This document shows, one piece after another, positions 58,328-64,000 of a stretch of DNA of 64,000 bases (position 1 is its first letter; each line of letters opens with the position of its first letter). Source of the DNA: Pseudomonadota bacterium (GTDB lineage Bacteria; Desulfobacterota; Desulfobulbia; Desulfobulbales; Desulfocapsaceae); the NCBI GenBank assembly GCA_018817385.1, contig JAHIUA010000043.1, positions 62,001-126,000 of the forward strand, in the 5' to 3' direction. Under the pieces are notes generated by a model that searched no databases, had not been told where the DNA came from, and was given only the letters and a program-made list of their open reading frames with translations. Both the position numbers and the translations under genes were made by a program.

Positions 58328-59887
58328 ATGAAGATATCAACCAGGCTTTTTCTCTATATTTCCACCTTACTCATTCTCACCACTGTCGGCATGGGCTATG
58401 TCTCTGTGCGTGATGAGCGCGTCCGGCTGATGAGTGAGGTGAGAGCACAAGGCAGGACATTAGCCAGCATCTTGGCCACAACATTTAAGTATTACCATAT
58501 GGGGGATCAGCAGCAGCGTATCGGGGAATTAATTCACGCAGTGATGCCACATGGGCAAGATGTCAATAACCTGTTGATCAACATTTATGACCGCCAGGGC
58601 GATCGTATGGGATTTTCCTTTGAGCATGGGATAAACAAAACTGCCCCCCATCAGAGCATAGAATTCACTGGCATCATAACGGGAAGCCGTGAAGAACTGA
58701 TTCAAGATGGCTCGTCTGCCTACTTTTCAGTAATCTCTCCGATTGTAACCAGTGGTGGAGAATTTCAGGGCGCTGTGGAAATTTTACTTTCTCTTGATCA
58801 AGTCAACCAAAACCTGGCAGGGCTCGTGCAAAAATTTATTGTTTTTGTCCTGTTAACCGCTTTGTTACTTGGGGCACTTATCTATTTTATCAGTCGTTGG
58901 AGTATTTCTCTGCCCATTGCCAAACTGCAAGAGGCGGCAGAGAAATTGGGTCATGGGGATCTTGGTTTGAGGATTGAAAAAAGTGGCGTTCGAGAGCTGG
59001 ATGATTTGATAGAAGAGTTTAATCGCATGGCCTACAACCTTGAACAGCAAAATAAGACAAGAGAAGAGTTGTTTACTGAAAAGATTGATCTCGAGAGGAA
59101 ACTGCGGCACACAGATAAACTTGCTTCCATTGGTCAGCTGGCCAGCGGTCTGGCCCATGAGATCGGTACTCCTCTAAATGTGATCAGCGGTCGAGCGGAA
59201 CATCTTCTGGGCAAGATAAGTGGAGAGCATCCTGGCGCTGAAAATCTAAAGAGTATCATCCGCCAATCGGAGCGGATTACAAAAACGATGCAGCAGTTAC
59301 TGGCTTTTTCCAGAAAATCTGCTGCCCATTTTGCTGAAATAAATTTTGAAAAGGTCATTCAGGAGGCATTTTCACTCTGTCAGTTACGGCAGCGGCCAAC
59401 AGATCCTCAAATAAAAATTGAATTGAACCTCTCTGAACAGAACATGATGGCAGATGAAGATGGTATGCGCCAACTTTTTGTGAATCTGATGTTGAACTCT
59501 TTCCATGTCTTGTCAGCTGGTGGCACCATACGAGTGAAGAGCACAGAGGATACCCAAAATGGCAACGGAATCATTGTCGCCTATGAAGATAATGGACCCG
59601 GAATTTCGCTGGATATCAGGCAGAGAATTTTTGATCCTTTTTTTACCACCAAGGATGTGGGAGAAGGGACGGGGCTTGGCCTGTATATAGTGACAAATAT
59701 CGTCCAGGAGCATCAGGGGCGGATAGAGATCGCCACTGATTTTGACCAAGGAACACGAATCATTATCCATTTTCCCCGTTCTCCGCGAAGCCCGCAGCCA
59801 CAGTCAGATAATGGCGTAACAGGGCCCTTAGGGTCTGTACGTGAACAACCTGTCCAATCCTGCAACGTATCTTCGGGTCATCTTTGA
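58328..59887 (+). CDS. Membrane sensor histidine kinase of the thiol-redox cluster
   Basis: 519 residues: membrane helix (6-26), periplasmic sensor with sCache-like pattern (30-165), helix (about 168-190), HAMP (190-245), HisKA with [19 protein letters not shown] and HATPase with EDNGPGIS and [14 protein letters not shown]. The native protein should end around [12 protein letters not shown]. Residues 501-519 are encoded by the MITE at 59828, which supplies the present stop. The likely partner is the sigma-54 regulator at 62988, beyond five redox genes. The signal may be envelope thiol or oxidant state (inference). Confidence 0.88.
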
Positions 59888-60011
59888 ATGCGACGCAATC
59901 ACAAAATCCTCAATAGCCCTCCTACGCCTGCGGTTTTGTTCAACCGCCGCATCCAAACCTGGCCCAAATCTAAGCATAATATCAGCGAGGTTATTCCCTC
60001 ACAGGCCCTAA
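59828..60011. mobile_element. 184-bp MITE with 24-bp TIRs
   Basis: TTAGGGTCTGTACGTGAACA at the left edge and its relative at the right (reverse complement TTAGGGCCTGTGAGGGAATA) match at 19 of 24 positions over the whole arm. TA dinucleotides flank the GGGTCTGT/ACAGGCCC core at both sides, compatible with an IS630/Tc1-type TA target (inference). It has no open frame. It overlaps the 3' end of the kinase and lies upstream of the phased GTCC array. Confidence 0.72.
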
Positions 60012-60053
60012 GGTGTCATCCCCTCTGAGCCAACGGTTCAACTGGGATATTTT

Positions 60054-60087
60054 GTCCCGCTGTGTCCTTTTTTGTCCCACCTCGTCC
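60054..60087 (+). promoter_or_regulatory. Phased GTCC array, candidate upstream activator site
   Basis: GTCC occurs at 60054, 60064, 60074 and 60084, exactly one helical turn apart, with TTTGTCCC repeated 20 bases apart. It is centred about 145 bases upstream of the sigma-54 -24 element, the normal place for activator enhancers. The regulator at 62988 is the obvious ligand (inference). Confidence 0.62.
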
Positions 60088-60211
60088 TCCTTGGAGTGTC
60101 GCCATAATCTTCTAAGAGACTATCTTGGCGCAACGAGTGATGGAGCGGTAATCTCCTGTCCTGCCTGGGCCTGGTAATATCTTTTTCCTTGATACTCTGC
60201 TGTTCTTGCTC

Positions 60212-60228
60212 TTGGCATAGCTCTTGCT
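60212..60228 (+). promoter_or_regulatory. Sigma-54 promoter of the dsb-tlpA operon
   Basis: TTGGCATAGCTCTTGCT has GG and GC 10 bases apart and an intact TTGC block. It is an almost ideal -24/-12 element, 65 bases ahead of the dsbB ATG. Confidence 0.85.
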
Positions 60229-60293
60229 CCATTCAAGGAAATCTGATCGCTTTCCCATCCCATCCCATCACTCAACTGTGGAGAACCTCTTCT

Positions 60294-60731
60294 ATGTCTC
60301 AGACTGATCAAACGGCCAATACAAACTGGACCCTTCTTTTCCTCTGTTGGCTGGTAGTCAGTGTGTCAATTACGGGAAGTGTCTTTTTTAGTTATGTCAT
60401 GGAGTTTGCTCCCTGCGTTTTGTGCTGGTATCAGAGAATATGTTTGTTCCCTTTGCTTCTTATCATAGCAGCAGGGCTTTTTCCCCTTGATAGGCGGGTT
60501 GTGAGGTATGCACTTCCCCTCGCCATAGCAGGGTGGCTGACGGCATTCTATCACACCTTGCTCTATTCCGGGATTATTCCGGAGAGTATCCAACCATGCG
60601 CTCAAGGAGTTTCGTGTACAGAAGAATATATAAAACTCTTTGGTGTTCTGACCATACCAATGCTTTCTTTACTTTCCTTTTCAACAATAATTGCCCTGTT
60701 ACTTATCTTCAAAAGGAGGATGTCTAAATGA
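60294..60731 (+). CDS. DsbB/BdbC-type disulfide oxidoreductase
   Basis: 145 residues with four membrane helices. The two DsbB cysteine pairs are CVLC (41-44, in PCVLCWYQR) and CAQGVSC (102-108). DsbB reoxidises a thioredoxin-like partner and passes electrons to quinone. The ATG at 60294 follows GGAGAACCTCTTCT; the longer frame to 60189 crosses the sigma-54 promoter. Its stop overlaps the start of the next gene (ATGA), so it is co-translated with its DsbA-type partner. The short loop and pairing with a membrane-anchored DsbA resemble the BdbC/BdbD pair. Confidence 0.9.
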   Translation: MSQTDQTANTNWTLLFLCWLVVSVSITGSVFFSYVMEFAPCVLCWYQRICLFPLLLIIAAGLFPLDRRVVRYALPLAIAGWLTAFYHTLLYSGIIPESIQPCAQGVSCTEEYIKLFGVLTIPMLSLLSFSTIIALLLIFKRRMSK

Positions 60732-61381
60732 AATATCTGATATTTGCAGTTTCGAGTCTTGTCTTGATTTTTGTGTTCGTTTTTGGCAGTTCTTATTACA
60801 AAGGACAGCAGGCTGAAAAATTTGGTTTTATGGCCAAAGAAAACGCAGCAACTTTTGTCAGAGAGCATTCACAGGCACTCGGCAGTGCTGAGGCGAAGGT
60901 CTATATCGTTGAGTTTATGGACCCAGCATGTGAAACCTGTGCAGCTTTTGCCCCTTTTGTTAAGCAGATGATGGCCGCCAATCCCGGCAAAATTAGGCTT
61001 GTCCTTCGCTATGCTCCCTTTCATGATGGCGCTGATTATTTTGTTACGATTCTGGAGGCATCAAAAAAACAGGGGAAATACTGGGAGACTTTGGATATCA
61101 TGTTTAAATCGCAACCATACTGGGCCAGTCACGCGAACCCTCAACCGCAACGAATATGGCAATTCCTGCCTCAGGCAGGACTCGACATAGAGCAACTCAA
61201 AAAAGATATGGATGATCCTGCAATTGCAAAACGTATTGAACAGGATCTTGCCGATGCCAAAACGCTTCAGGTTCACAAGACACCAGGCTATTTTGTTAAT
61301 GGGAAACCTCTGCAAACCTTCGGTTATCAACAATTACAGGAATTGGTTCAGTCTGAGCTCAGGGCGATGTATCCGAATTAA
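60728..61381 (+). CDS. Membrane-anchored DsbA/BdbD-type thiol oxidase
   Basis: 217 residues: an N-terminal membrane anchor or signal (4-21), then a thioredoxin fold with active site CETC (68-71, in MDPACETCAAF) and the cis-Pro loop KTPGYFVNG. DPxCxxC with the helical insert is the BdbD/Ecm form of DsbA, which introduces disulfides outside the cytoplasm. ATG overlaps the dsbB stop, and AAAAGGAGGATGTCT serves as the ribosome binding site. Compared with E. coli DsbA the active-site dipeptide ET is unusual (normally PH). Confidence 0.9.
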   Translation: MKYLIFAVSSLVLIFVFVFGSSYYKGQQAEKFGFMAKENAATFVREHSQALGSAEAKVYIVEFMDPACETCAAFAPFVKQMMAANPGKIRLVLRYAPFHDGADYFVTILEASKKQGKYWETLDIMFKSQPYWASHANPQPQRIWQFLPQAGLDIEQLKKDMDDPAIAKRIEQDLADAKTLQVHKTPGYFVNGKPLQTFGYQQLQELVQSELRAMYPN

Positions 61382-61417
61382 TTAACGCTTTCCCCATGAA
61401 TTTTATCAGAGGTCATA

Positions 61418-61924
61418 ATGAAAAAAATAGTCCTGATTCTCTTGCTCTGTTGTTGCGCCGTGGTCCTTGCTTCCTGTGGGCAAGCACCAACCGTGGCTGA
61501 GGTTGGCAAACCGGCTCCGGATTTTACCCTGGTGGACAGGAAAGGGAAAACCTGGACCCTCTCCGAACTGAAGGGACAGGTGGTTTTTGTGAATTTTTGG
61601 GCCACCTGGTGTCCTCCCTGTCGTGAGGAGATGCCTTCAATGCAAAGGTTGCACACAATGCTCCCGCAAGATAAATTTAAAATGCTGGCGATACTCAATA
61701 GTGATGATCCTGCATTGGCGGATAGTTTTGCCGCAAAACTAGGCATTACCATGCCAATTCTTGATGACCAAGCCAATACGGTTGGTCCGAAATATGGACT
61801 GACCGGAGTGCCTGAGACTTTTATAGTTGATAAGCAGGGTGTGCTCCGAGAAAAATTTATTGGTCCTGCTCGCTGGGACTCTCCCGGGTATATACAAATG
61901 CTGACGAAATATATTAACCAGTGA
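61418..61924 (+). CDS. TlpA-like thioredoxin lipoprotein
   Basis: 168 residues. The signal ends in a lipobox LASC with Cys20, so the protein is a membrane-attached lipoprotein. A TlpA/ResA fold follows: GKPAPDFTLVDRKGKTW, WCPPC active site (64-68), LKGQVVFVNFWA strand and GVPETFIVDKQG cis-Pro loop. TlpA proteins are reducing thioredoxins for cytochrome maturation or thiol repair in the envelope. Placed beside DsbA and DsbB it gives both oxidising and reducing branches in the same operon. The stop overlaps the next start (ATGA). Confidence 0.92.
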   Translation: MKKIVLILLLCCCAVVLASCGQAPTVAEVGKPAPDFTLVDRKGKTWTLSELKGQVVFVNFWATWCPPCREEMPSMQRLHTMLPQDKFKMLAILNSDDPALADSFAAKLGITMPILDDQANTVGPKYGLTGVPETFIVDKQGVLREKFIGPARWDSPGYIQMLTKYINQ

Positions 61925-62094
61925 TGACCAGGAAAAAAGTCAGAGTGGTGAAAAACGACCAGATTCGGATAGTTCCCTTTGCGGCGATATTTTTTTTCCT
62001 CCTCCTTGGGGCTATCGGAATCAGTTTAGGAGAGCCATCACGGGTCCTTGAACAGGCAACGCAAATTTGTCTGTCCTGTATAGGGATAGGCTAG
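61924..62094 (+). CDS. CXXC micropeptide (CD1871A-like)
   Basis: 56 residues from an ATG overlapping the tlpA stop: a basic N-terminus (MTRKKVRVV), one membrane helix (about 17-34), a GEPSRVLEQATQ linker and the ending CLSCIGIG with CxxC at 49-52. The pattern of a small anchored protein ending C-x-x-C-x-G-x-G between a TlpA gene and a 4Fe-4S membrane protein is what I remember as the CD1871A CXXC family. The function is unknown. The CxxC is on the same face as the TlpA and DsbA active sites if the N-terminus is cytoplasmic, suggesting a relay step. Confidence 0.83.
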   Translation: MTRKKVRVVKNDQIRIVPFAAIFFFLLLGAIGISLGEPSRVLEQATQICLSCIGIG

Positions 62095-62097
62095 CGT

Positions 62098-62988
62098 ATG
62101 GATCGCATTCGTCGATGGGTCCAGGCCCTGTTCTTTCTTATTACAAATGGGTACTGGAATTTTCCGCTTACGAGGGGCATATACCAGGGGCCGCTCAAGG
62201 TGATTTGTTCGCCAGGGCTTAATTGTTATTCCTGTCCAGCTGCTACAAGCTATTGTCCCCTTGGTGCCTTGCAGCAACTCATTGCCGGGGTTCGCTTATC
62301 CCTTGAGAACGGCCAGTTCTTTGTCGGCTTTTATGTTGTGGGTGCCATGGGCGCCATCGGGAGCTTTGTTGGCCGCATGGTTTGTGGCTGGGCCTGTCCA
62401 TTTGGTCTTTTTCAGGAGCTGCTCCATAAAATCCCTTCACCAAAGTTTGCTGTCTGGCGACCGCTACGCTACTTGAAATATGCTCTCTTGCTTTTTATGG
62501 TTATCCTCCTGCCCCTCTTTGTGGTTGATGAATCCGGCTTTGGCCACACATGGTTTTGCAAGTATTTATGTCCCGCAGGCACCTTAGAGGCTGGATTGCC
62601 GATGCTTCTTCTCCAGCCTGCTCTGCGAGCAAACCTAGGTCTGCTCTTCTTGAATAAGCTTTTTTTTCTTTTTCTTTTTGTTGCTTGGTCTGTTGTGGCC
62701 AGTCGGCCTTTTTGTCGAACTGCTTGTCCTCTTGGGGCTTTTTATGGCCTGTTCAGTAAAATAAAACTGGTCAAGTTGCGCCTGGATCCTGAAAAATGTA
62801 CCCATTGCCAAGCCTGTCATGCCGTTTGTCCCATGGGGGTGCGCTTTAATGAATCCCCTGATGATATGGACTGTATCTCATGTCTTGCCTGCAGTAAGGC
62901 CTGTACCTTTAACGCCATCAATCTTGAAGTCGGAGGGGTATCTCTTACAGGTCAAGCCCCTCAACGGCTGAGGAGAATTCACCCATAA
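62098..62988 (+). CDS. NapH-like membrane ferredoxin
   Basis: 296 residues with four or five membrane helices. Cys motifs are CYSCPAATSYCPLG (about 43-58), CGWACPFGLFQE (about 97), CKYLCPAG (about 156), CRTACPLG (about 206) and two ferredoxin clusters at the end, CTHCQACHAVCPMG and CISCLACSKACTF. Related NapH/NosR proteins move electrons from the quinone pool across the membrane. In this operon the acceptor could be the TlpA/CXXC pair. Its start is three bases past the micropeptide stop, and its stop overlaps the next ATG by one base. Confidence 0.88.
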   Translation: MDRIRRWVQALFFLITNGYWNFPLTRGIYQGPLKVICSPGLNCYSCPAATSYCPLGALQQLIAGVRLSLENGQFFVGFYVVGAMGAIGSFVGRMVCGWACPFGLFQELLHKIPSPKFAVWRPLRYLKYALLLFMVILLPLFVVDESGFGHTWFCKYLCPAGTLEAGLPMLLLQPALRANLGLLFLNKLFFLFLFVAWSVVASRPFCRTACPLGAFYGLFSKIKLVKLRLDPEKCTHCQACHAVCPMGVRFNESPDDMDCISCLACSKACTFNAINLEVGGVSLTGQAPQRLRRIHP

Positions 62989-64000
62989 TGCCCATGGACG
63001 AACAGACACATCTCAATGTTCTTGTGGTTGAAGATGACCAGGATATGCGTGAATTCATCGAAGAAATTCTCGCAGAGCAGGGCTATATCGTGACCACGGT
63101 GGCAAATGGAAAAGAGGCCTTGGCAAGATTGGAAGAGGTTGCCTTCCCTGTGATTGTCTCAGATCTTAAAATGCCGGTTATGGACGGTATTACCTTGTTG
63201 GAAGAAATAGGTGCGAGAGATATTTTCAAACCTTTTGTCATTCTGATCACCGCATTTGGTGATATTGATGATGCAATTACATTGATTAATCGTGGCGCCT
63301 ACGATTATATTATTAAGCCTTTTAAAATGGAACAGCTCCTTATCTCGGTTAGGAAGGCGGCGGCTGAGTTGGCAATGCGGCGCAAGATTGAAACGTTGGA
63401 GCAGATTAGCAAGGGCCGTCACAGTCTCCATGATCTGATCGGCAAGAGTCCCTCCATGCACAAACTTTTTCGTTTTATTGAGAAAATTGCCGATACCTCC
63501 GGAAATGTTCTCCTTGAAGGGGAGACCGGCACCGGGAAAGAAGTTATTGCCAGGGCCATTCACCAGATTTCCACCAGAAAAGAGAAACCTTTTGTGCCGG
63601 TTAACTGTGCTGCCATCCCGGAAGGGCTCTTGGAGAGTGAGCTGTTCGGGTATGTCAAGGGGGCCTTTACGGATGCCGCTTCCGACAAAAAAGGATTGTT
63701 TGTGGAGGCGGCTGATGGCACGATTTTGTTGGACGAAATTGGTGAAATGCCCGTGGCTATTCAGGCCAAGATATTACGGGTCTTGCAGGACAGACAGATA
63801 CGACCAGTTGGCTCGAATGTCTTTCATCCTGTCGAGGCTCGGATTCTGGCGGCAACAAATAAAAACTTAAAGGAAGAGGTTGCTGGCGGACGTTTCAGGG
63901 AAGATCTTTATTACAGGTTGAATATTTTTAAAATAGAAGTGCCTCCGCTCAGAGAACGCCGGGAGGACATTCCTCTCTTGATAAGAGAATTCTTGAACCG
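62988..64000 (+). CDS. Sigma-54-dependent response regulator (3' end outside window)
   Basis: 337 codons are seen. Receiver domain: VVEDDQDMRE, phospho-Asp in VIVSDLKMPVMDG, and KPFKM. AAA+ domain: Walker A GETGTGKEV, VKGAFTDA in place of the standard GAFTGA (residues 225-230), Walker B TILLDEIGE and RLNIFKIEVPPLRERRED. The second Gly-to-Asp change in the sigma-54 contact loop is unusual but found in some natural activators. ATG overlaps the ferredoxin stop; an ATG at 62994 is an alternative. It is the likely partner of the kinase at 58328. Confidence 0.9.
   Translation, partial: MPMDEQTHLNVLVVEDDQDMREFIEEILAEQGYIVTTVANGKEALARLEEVAFPVIVSDLKMPVMDGITLLEEIGARDIFKPFVILITAFGDIDDAITLINRGAYDYIIKPFKMEQLLISVRKAAAELAMRRKIETLEQISKGRHSLHDLIGKSPSMHKLFRFIEKIADTSGNVLLEGETGTGKEVIARAIHQISTRKEKPFVPVNCAAIPEGLLESELFGYVKGAFTDAASDKKGLFVEAADGTILLDEIGEMPVAIQAKILRVLQDRQIRPVGSNVFHPVEARILAATNKNLKEEVAGGRFREDLYYRLNIFKIEVPPLRERREDIPLLIREFLN

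What the first reader, a model, noticed from the sequence alone, without database searches (positions are those of the whole stretch)
58328..64000. Kinase and sigma-54 activator bracket a complete membrane thiol/disulfide and Fe-S relay
Seen: kinase, then a sigma-54 promoter, dsbB, dsbA, tlpA lipoprotein, a 56-residue CXXC micropeptide, a NapH-like ferredoxin and an NtrC-type regulator, with overlaps of 4, 1 and 1 bases at three of the five junctions. Known: DsbA/DsbB oxidise, TlpA reduces, NapH-like proteins transfer quinone-derived electrons. Inference: the kinase senses envelope redox or an oxidant and switches on a unit able both to make and to break disulfides, with the micropeptide linking the ferredoxin to TlpA. 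I do not know of a described system with this composition.
Basis: partly seen in the sequence, partly recalled or inferred. Interest (0 to 1): 0.8.

Follow-up and report, generated by a model that had tools for sequence, protein, structure and literature searches.

The report
Iron-sulfur wire with selenium-capable thiol micropeptide
A tiny membrane protein ending in a two-cysteine motif is almost always encoded beside a membrane iron-sulfur protein in many anaerobic bacteria, and together they may carry electrons across the membrane to keep proteins outside the cytoplasm reduced.

Summary
The genes are as described. The core is a two-gene module: a CD1871A-family micropeptide ending in CxxC-[IVLM]-G-x-G and a distinctive NapH-like Fe-S membrane protein. 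Searching by peptide gave a NapH-like gene beside it in 63 of 64 loci; searching by the Fe-S protein, best 80 loci kept, gave the peptide in the cluster in 80 of 80. In one family the first Cys of CxxC is an in-frame UGA in 11 of 17 copies, with a SECIS-like hairpin in 11 of 11: probably a new selenoprotein. The partner has six cysteines, predicted outside, that E. coli NapH and YccM lack. TlpA is adjacent in 46 of 80 named loci. CcdA/DsbD was not found in 33 of 47 module genomes, and is missing more often with than without the peptide in the window's phylum (23/62 versus 27/235). I infer an Fe-S route reducing extracytoplasmic thiols in place of CcdA/DsbD. The kinase/sigma-54 bracket is local to one genus; in two relatives that pair precedes a ccm operon. 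A 2025 preprint already reports the TlpA/CxxC/4Fe-4S operon in gut Clostridia.

The parts
58328..59887 (+). sensor histidine kinase, 519 aa
   Evidence: PF00672, PF00512, PF02518; orthologue in 8 of 93 family genomes, own included
60212..60228 (+). sigma-54-type promoter-like site
   Evidence: pattern match; same position in 5 of 14 family cassettes, own included
60294..60731 (+). DsbB/BdbC-type disulfide oxidoreductase
   Evidence: PF02600 47.5 bits, cut-off 22.1
60728..61381 (+). DsbA/BdbD-type oxidoreductase, CETC
   Evidence: PF13462 78.4 bits, cut-off 23.2
61418..61924 (+). TlpA/ResA-like lipoprotein, CPPC
   Evidence: PF00578 102 bits; ResA model NF002854 112 bits, below cut-off 170
61924..62094 (+). 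CXXC micropeptide, 56 aa: basic N-terminus, one hydrophobic helix, C-terminus ...EQATQICLSCIGIG
   Evidence: NF040920 34.6 bits, cut-off 32; second copy in the same genome
62098..62988 (+). NapH-like polyferredoxin, four membrane helices by my reading, 18 conserved cysteines
   Evidence: PF12801, PF00037; alignment A2; comparison with E. coli NapH and YccM
62988..64000 (+). NtrC-type sigma-54 activator (continues beyond the window)
   Evidence: PF00072, PF00158; full gene L003 4988-6340

Best explanation
The micropeptide and the NapH-like protein form a two-subunit membrane electron-transfer unit. Electrons from the cytoplasm (ferredoxin) or from quinol enter the two cytoplasmic [4Fe-4S] sites, pass an inner-side cluster bound by Cys96/100/206/210 and a second, outer-side cluster bound by Cys43/46/53/158, and reduce the CXXC (in some lineages UXXC) at the peptide's outward C-terminus. 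The peptide then reduces an extracytoplasmic redoxin, often the neighbouring TlpA. It thus works like CcdA/DsbD but with Fe-S clusters instead of a membrane thiol relay. In the window this unit shares an operon with DsbB/DsbA under a probable sigma-54 promoter; the same kinase-regulator pair precedes a ccm operon in two relatives, so here its likeliest job is thiol management of secreted proteins such as apocytochromes c. Shown: gene pairing, cysteine conservation, UGA/Cys exchange with SECIS-like hairpin, association with missing CcdA/DsbD in the phylum sample, promoter conservation. Inferred: cluster ligation, topology, direction of electron flow, TlpA as acceptor, cytochrome link.
For: Pairing found from both sides: 63 of 64 peptide loci have the NapH-like gene on the same strand, 61 directly downstream within 49 nt, one at 315 nt, one upstream; 80 of 80 NapH-like loci have the peptide in the cluster, 78 adjacent and 2 about 2.1 kb downstream. 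UGA at exactly the first Cys in 11 of 17 copies of family f28; SECIS-like stem 6/6 pairs in 11 of 11 against 1 of 6 Cys copies; tRNA-Sec over 65 bits in 10 of 11 UGA genomes, and not over the cut-off in 3 of 5 Cys-only genomes, present in the other 2. Ten membrane-domain Cys invariant in 72 sequences, six of them absent in E. coli NapH and YccM. TlpA adjacent in 46 of 80 named loci, 37 of 48 in L129-L176; 56 near hits against 6 in 698 kb farther off (the profile was built from such neighbours). Neither PF02683 nor PF13386 in 33 of 47 module genomes; phylum sample 23/62 versus 27/235 without PF02683, Fisher p 1.1e-5. Kinase-regulator pair before CcmE-F-H, an ABC ATPase, CcmB and a CcmC-type gene in L211; similar ORFs by eye in L213, with PF01578 hits there.
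Against: No experiment. In the phylum sample most copies have no TlpA beside them (4 of 63 adjacent, own included; 8 of 63 in a wider span), so the acceptor is unknown there. 39 of 62 peptide genomes, the window's own among them, also carry PF02683 proteins. Fisher's test ignores phylogeny (in 9 of 27 families all sampled peptide genomes lack PF02683). For L129-L176 I have no baseline of clostridial genomes without the module, many are MAGs of untold completeness, and 13 of 47 do have PF02683. Clostridia have no cytochromes c as a rule (recalled), so a cytochrome role cannot be general. Cys154 is Ser in three of 24 diverse sequences and Cys37 is shifted in two. AF2 confidence is low at the outer cysteine loop in both models, middling at CXXC and low behind it; no coordinates were returned, so docking and clusters are unproven. 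Of the two UGA-type loci seen with wide flanks, one (L065) has a TlpA-like neighbour that lacks CXXC and the other (L063) has none. Sec insertion itself is unproven.
Confidence: 0.5

Rival explanations
1. Same complex, opposite direction: the peptide's CXXC takes electrons from envelope thiols and the Fe-S protein passes them to quinone or ferredoxin, an anaerobic thiol oxidase next to DsbB.
For: NapH-like proteins are described as serving reductases or oxidases (PMC8238504, passages); DsbA/DsbB lie in the same operon.
Against: DsbB already provides an oxidase in the window; the commonest redox neighbour in the named loci is a TlpA-type protein; genomes with the module lack CcdA/DsbD, a reductant source, more often.
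Confidence: 0.15
2. The peptide is a structural subunit: its two cysteines ligate or help assemble an Fe-S cluster of the NapH-like protein, or bind a metal or persulfide, without thiol exchange.
For: Near-obligate pairing and short conserved C-terminus; CXXC is also a common metal and cluster motif (recalled).
Against: The partner alone has 18 conserved Cys, enough for four clusters plus two; exchange of the first Cys for UGA with tRNA-Sec present fits a catalytic thiol better than a ligand.
Confidence: 0.2
3. The module feeds a sulfur-compound or other respiratory redox step (for example polysulfide or organomercury/arsenic chemistry), and TlpA/DsbA are only operon neighbours.
For: The genus group includes a record titled Desulfocapsa sulfexigens (L097 = L196; sulfur disproportionation recalled); downstream ArsR, SaoE-like permease, MbdU-like protein, two thioredoxin-like and two CcdA-like genes.
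Against: The pair is also in clostridial and Acidobacteriota records, and in many phylum loci beside housekeeping-type ORFs.
Confidence: 0.12

Closest known systems
TlpA / CxxC / 4Fe-4S three-gene operon of gut Clostridia (bioRxiv 2025, PMC12637426; section 8 read whole, other passages)
   Same: same three proteins, CxxC gene between TlpA and 4Fe-4S in all instances but one; redox role suggested, and reduction of extracellular or cell-surface targets raised as a possibility in its discussion
   Different: reported as a biomarker operon without mechanism or experiment on it; in the parts I read no selenocysteine form, outer-side cysteine set, CcdA/DsbD comparison, DsbAB or sigma-54 context
CD1871A family CXXC protein, NCBIfam NF040920
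   Same: the micropeptide is a member (34.6 bits, cut-off 32)
   Different: the search shows a family name only; the UGA forms score 18.9-22.5 bits, below the cut-off
NapH / YccM and flavinylated NapH-like proteins (PceC, NosR-type; PMC8238504, passages)
   Same: the two inner-side CX3CP motifs and two ferredoxin sites; membrane electron transfer to the outside
   Different: six extra cysteines on the predicted outer side, no FMN-binding domain found in the operon proteins, a CXXC peptide in its place
DsbD / CcdA
   Same: proposed job: reductant for extracytoplasmic TlpA-type redoxins
   Different: no PF02683 match in the NapH-like protein; Fe-S instead of membrane cysteine pairs

Membership tests
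CD1871A family (NF040920) | score over curated cut-off 32 bits | tested here: met
   34.6 bits, residues 27-56
NapH (TIGR02163, NF007013) | score over curated cut-off (213 / 234 bits) | tested here: not met
   66.7 and 57.2 bits
NapH / YccM superfamily | two CX3CP motifs plus two Fer4 sites | tested here: met
   Cys96/100/206/210 and seven of eight ferredoxin Cys columns shared by all six aligned sequences, E. coli NapH and YccM included; the last ferredoxin column is offset in YccM and L063
Flavinylated NapH-like system | FMN-binding domain in or beside the protein | tested here: not met
   no such Pfam match in the seven operon proteins; genes outside the operon not tested
DsbD/CcdA | PF02683 or PF13386 membrane domain | tested here: not met
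   NapH-like protein has neither
TlpA/ResA redoxin | AhpC-TSA/Redoxin fold with CPPC, lipobox | tested here: met
   PF00578, PF08534; CPPC and LASC seen in the translation
TlpA/ResA redoxin | ResA subfamily cut-off 170 bits | tested here: not met
   111.9 bits
Bacterial selenoprotein (family f28 homologues, not the window copy) | in-frame UGA at a Cys position and SECIS-like hairpin | tested here: met
   11 of 17 copies UGA, hairpin 11 of 11 against 1 of 6 Cys copies
Bacterial selenoprotein (family f28 homologues) | Sec machinery in the genome | tested here: inconclusive
   tRNA-Sec over 65 bits in 10 of 11 UGA genomes; SelA/SelB/SelD not searched
Bacterial selenoprotein (family f28 homologues) | selenium incorporation shown | not testable with these tools
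   needs 75Se labelling or mass spectrometry
Two-component system driving a sigma-54 operon | kinase, NtrC-type regulator, -24/-12 site, rpoN | tested here: met
   dependence itself not testable here

The most novel reading that the evidence does not exclude
A further class of transmembrane thiol-reductant supply, beside CcdA/DsbD: a multi-cluster Fe-S wire coupled to a C-terminal CXXC/UXXC micropeptide, widespread in strict anaerobes and able to replace CcdA/DsbD, with the peptide a new and unusually small selenoprotein family.
Probability: 0.4. Interest if true: 0.85.

Novelty: new variant of a known kind. Interest (0 to 1): 0.62.

Why it matters
How strict anaerobes without CcdA/DsbD keep TlpA-type proteins outside the membrane reduced is, as far as I know, unclear. 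This module gives a concrete, testable candidate in sulfate reducers and gut Clostridia, the latter already noted as a clinical biomarker operon. A roughly 50-residue selenoprotein whose Sec exchanges with Cys at one fixed position would also be an unusually simple system for studying Sec against Cys.

Tried and rejected
Two-component linkage as a general feature: rejected; in L129-L176 hits to an OmpR-type response-regulator profile were 15 in 346 kb near and 13 in 271 kb far. Solved structures: by sequence the membrane part matched nothing, the listed best stretches lie in the ferredoxin part; by fold no match with E <= 0.001 for the NapH-like model; viral fold library none with E <= 0.001 for the read-through model. 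RNA families at gathering score and tRNAs in the window: none. Paper searches: CD1871A (0 papers), CXXC small membrane protein with TlpA, TlpA/4Fe-4S/CXXC/NapH (1 paper, the preprint), selenoprotein UxxC (22 papers, 15 listed), CcdA/TlpA/NapH (11 papers, 10 listed), TlpA ferredoxin operon Desulfocapsa. Not done: tree-corrected test of the CcdA/DsbD association, a clostridial baseline, PF13386 in the phylum sample, search for SelA/SelB, complex prediction of TlpA with the peptide.
Full report
OBSERVATION. All reported genes, junctions and the sigma-54-like site are in the sequence. The window is G000:C93:62001-126000 of a 5.38-Mb genome. Its genus group holds a MAG titled Desulfocapsa sulfexigens (L097 and L196 are 5456-base contigs with the same gene layout, taken to be the same). 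The regulator, cut by the window, is complete in L003. The genome has one rpoN match.

CORE MODULE. The micropeptide is an NF040920 (CD1871A family) member. A second copy in the same genome also lies before a NapH-like gene, near ORFs that look like parA/parB and without a TlpA hit beside it. In 297 genomes of the phylum 62 hold the peptide at E <= 0.001, 36 of them over the family's cut-off; it rings in 0 of 14 control genomes. Of the 64 loci (two of them the window genome's own) 63 have a NapH-like gene on the same strand: 61 directly downstream within 49 nt (start codons chosen by script), one at 315 nt, one upstream; one orphan copy, L046, has none. Record titles include Desulfobulbaceae, Deltaproteobacteria, Acidobacteria/Acidobacteriota, many clostridia, Spirochaetaceae and Adlercreutzia. 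77 of 80 had the peptide adjacent by pattern (75 upstream, 2 downstream); L167 has it adjacent with a three-residue tail, and L134 and L155 have it about 2.1 kb downstream. The two sets overlap in part (L097/L196, L098/L202, L099/L208 and L117/L083 agree in contig length), and one scan pattern is the outer cysteine motif, so the scan favours this subtype.

THE PEPTIDE. I collected 162 distinct peptides with a motif expression that already asks for CxxC and a following Gly, so those are built in. Within that, at least 152 end CxxC-[IVLM]-G-x-G (94 IGIG, 22 IGVG, 17 IGLG, 12 VGIG, 6 MGIG, 1 LGVG), and a Glu stands 12 residues before the first Cys in 157 (one, ending AGF, looks like a chance hit). 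Positive N-terminus, one hydrophobic helix and a short C-terminus suggest an outward C-terminus (inference).

SELENOCYSTEINE FORM. In family f28 (24 genomes) 17 matches were found in 16 genomes at E <= 0.01; in 11 the first Cys codon is TGA. All 11 have a stem GGGGTC with GATCCC, GACCCC or GACTCC and loop GGGT starting 18 nt after the UGA, six of six pairs; of six Cys copies one keeps six pairs. All 11 read GTC (Val) at a codon that four of six Cys copies read as ATC (Ile), which keeps the stem. Stem changes are on one side only, and single-sequence fold energies were not far outside shuffles (fractions 0.005-0.19). The review PMC13188914 gives 16-37 nt to the apical loop and a G in one of its first two positions (passages), which this fits. 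tRNA-Sec at 67 bits or more is in 18 of 24 genomes, in 10 of 11 with UGA (G299, 89% complete, is the exception), and not in G308, G309 and G278 of the five Cys-only genomes, while G061 and G310 have it; weaker matches below about 47 bits occur in all 24 and in control genomes and look like ordinary tRNAs. That review, which says it covers 119 selenoprotein families or subfamilies, does not contain NF040920 or CD1871A (find). I take this as probable, not proven, selenocysteine; the window's own copy has Cys.

THE NAPH-LIKE PARTNER. In 72 sequences (the window and 71 of the 80 named loci; nine were left out) Cys37, 43, 46, 53, 96, 100, 154, 158, 206, 210 and eight ferredoxin Cys are invariant. 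In a more diverse set of 24, Cys43, 46, 53, 96, 100, 158, 206 and 210 stay invariant, while 37 and 154 do not. E. coli NapH and YccM keep 96, 100, 206 and 210 but lack the other six. With four helices and the positive-inside rule (my reading) those six lie outside: four for a second membrane cluster, two possibly a thiol pair. AF2: 296 aa, mean pLDDT 81, below 50 at 37-42 and 44-48. An artificial read-through of L123 (titled Acidobacteriota) gave mean pLDDT 85 with a confident peptide helix at 4-22; the block holding CXXC averages 72, and 46-61 and 98-104 are below 50. No coordinates were returned, so contacts were not measured. No solved membrane homologue was found.

PARTNERS. TlpA is adjacent on the same strand in 46 of 80 named loci (37 of 48 in L129-L176, 9 of 32 in L097-L128), and in 4 of 63 phylum loci (8 of 63 in a wider span). 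56 hits lie near and 6 in 698 kb farther off (the profile was built from such neighbours plus the window's TlpA). DsbB-DsbA-TlpA-peptide-NapH is complete in 14 of 17 family copies of this type (L196 is cut by the contig end, L198 shows no DsbB hit, L199 none of the three).

CCDA/DSBD. 34 of the 47 genomes holding L129-L176 lack a PF02683 match, and 33 of these 34 also lack PF13386. Completeness is not told for these genomes, and I have no baseline of similar genomes without the module. In the phylum sample, 23 of 62 peptide genomes and 27 of 235 others lack PF02683 (Fisher p 1.1e-5, uncorrected for kinship; PF13386 not tested there). The window's genome has both routes (3 PF02683 matches).

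REGULATION. The kinase has orthologues in 8 of 93 family genomes at E <= 1e-60, all in the genus, own included. In four (L003, L194, L204, L209) it precedes the cassette with the sigma-54-like site between; the regulator follows in three, and the contig of L209 ends first; L196 has only a short regulator-like ORF there. The site also occurs in L195 without a kinase hit, and the other nine of 14 cassettes lack it at that position (random 306-base pieces reach two mismatches or fewer in 45 of 2800, and L207 has such a hit elsewhere). In L210, L211 and L213 kinase and regulator are neighbours without the cassette. In L211 they precede CcmE, CcmF, CcmH, an ABC ATPase, CcmB and a CcmC-type gene; L213 shows similar ORFs by eye with PF01578 hits. 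Large CcmF-type frames (656 aa) were found in G319, G321 and G322 only of 11 genomes searched; the four cassette-bracketing genomes, the window's among them, have only 285-290-aa frames. So the cassette sits within a pair that in relatives accompanies cytochrome c maturation; this is my reason for naming apocytochromes as likely clients here. A UGA-type copy, L065, lies among ORFs rich in CxxCH.

LITERATURE. PMC12637426 (2025 preprint; section 8 read whole, other passages) reports the TlpA/CxxC/4Fe-4S operon, in six species of Clostridia and one Firmicutes, as novel and as a predictor of immune-related adverse events, suggests a redox-homeostasis role and raises reduction of extracellular targets. 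PMC8238504 (passages) describes NapH-like proteins with FMN domains and DsbD systems. I found no worked-out mechanism for the present module in searches; subscription papers are mostly not covered.

VERDICT. Confidence in the reductant model 0.5.

Noticed in passing
L003 6705-12375 (beyond the window, G000:C93 126705-132375): Downstream island: thioredoxin-like lipoprotein with GGPC, CcdA-like, MbdU-like protein (NF045648, minus strand, 330 bits, below cut-off 600), ArsR, SaoE-like permease, thioredoxin, second CcdA-like; all but the MbdU-like gene, which was not searched, lie in the same order in L194.
   Followed up: partly
L211 10965-16999: ccm operon behind the kinase-regulator pair, in place of the redox cassette.
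   Followed up: partly
clusters 1 and 2 (e.g. L093, L071): A small MTH1187/thiamine-binding-like ORF (named from recall) lies just upstream of the peptide in 15 of 64 phylum loci, and an XTP/dITP pyrophosphatase-like ORF (named from recall) nearby, mostly downstream, in 13.
   Followed up: no
L134 and L155, end of the NapH-like gene: These NapH-like proteins carry an extra Cys-rich C-terminal tail, and their peptide gene lies about 2.1 kb downstream.
   Followed up: no
L046 (G196:C70): Orphan Cys-type peptide gene without a NapH-like gene beside it; the same genome has a UGA-type copy elsewhere (L193).
   Followed up: partly
window:57048-57830: Alpha-acetolactate decarboxylase with signal-like N-terminus (PF03306, 270 bits), upstream of the kinase.
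   Followed up: no
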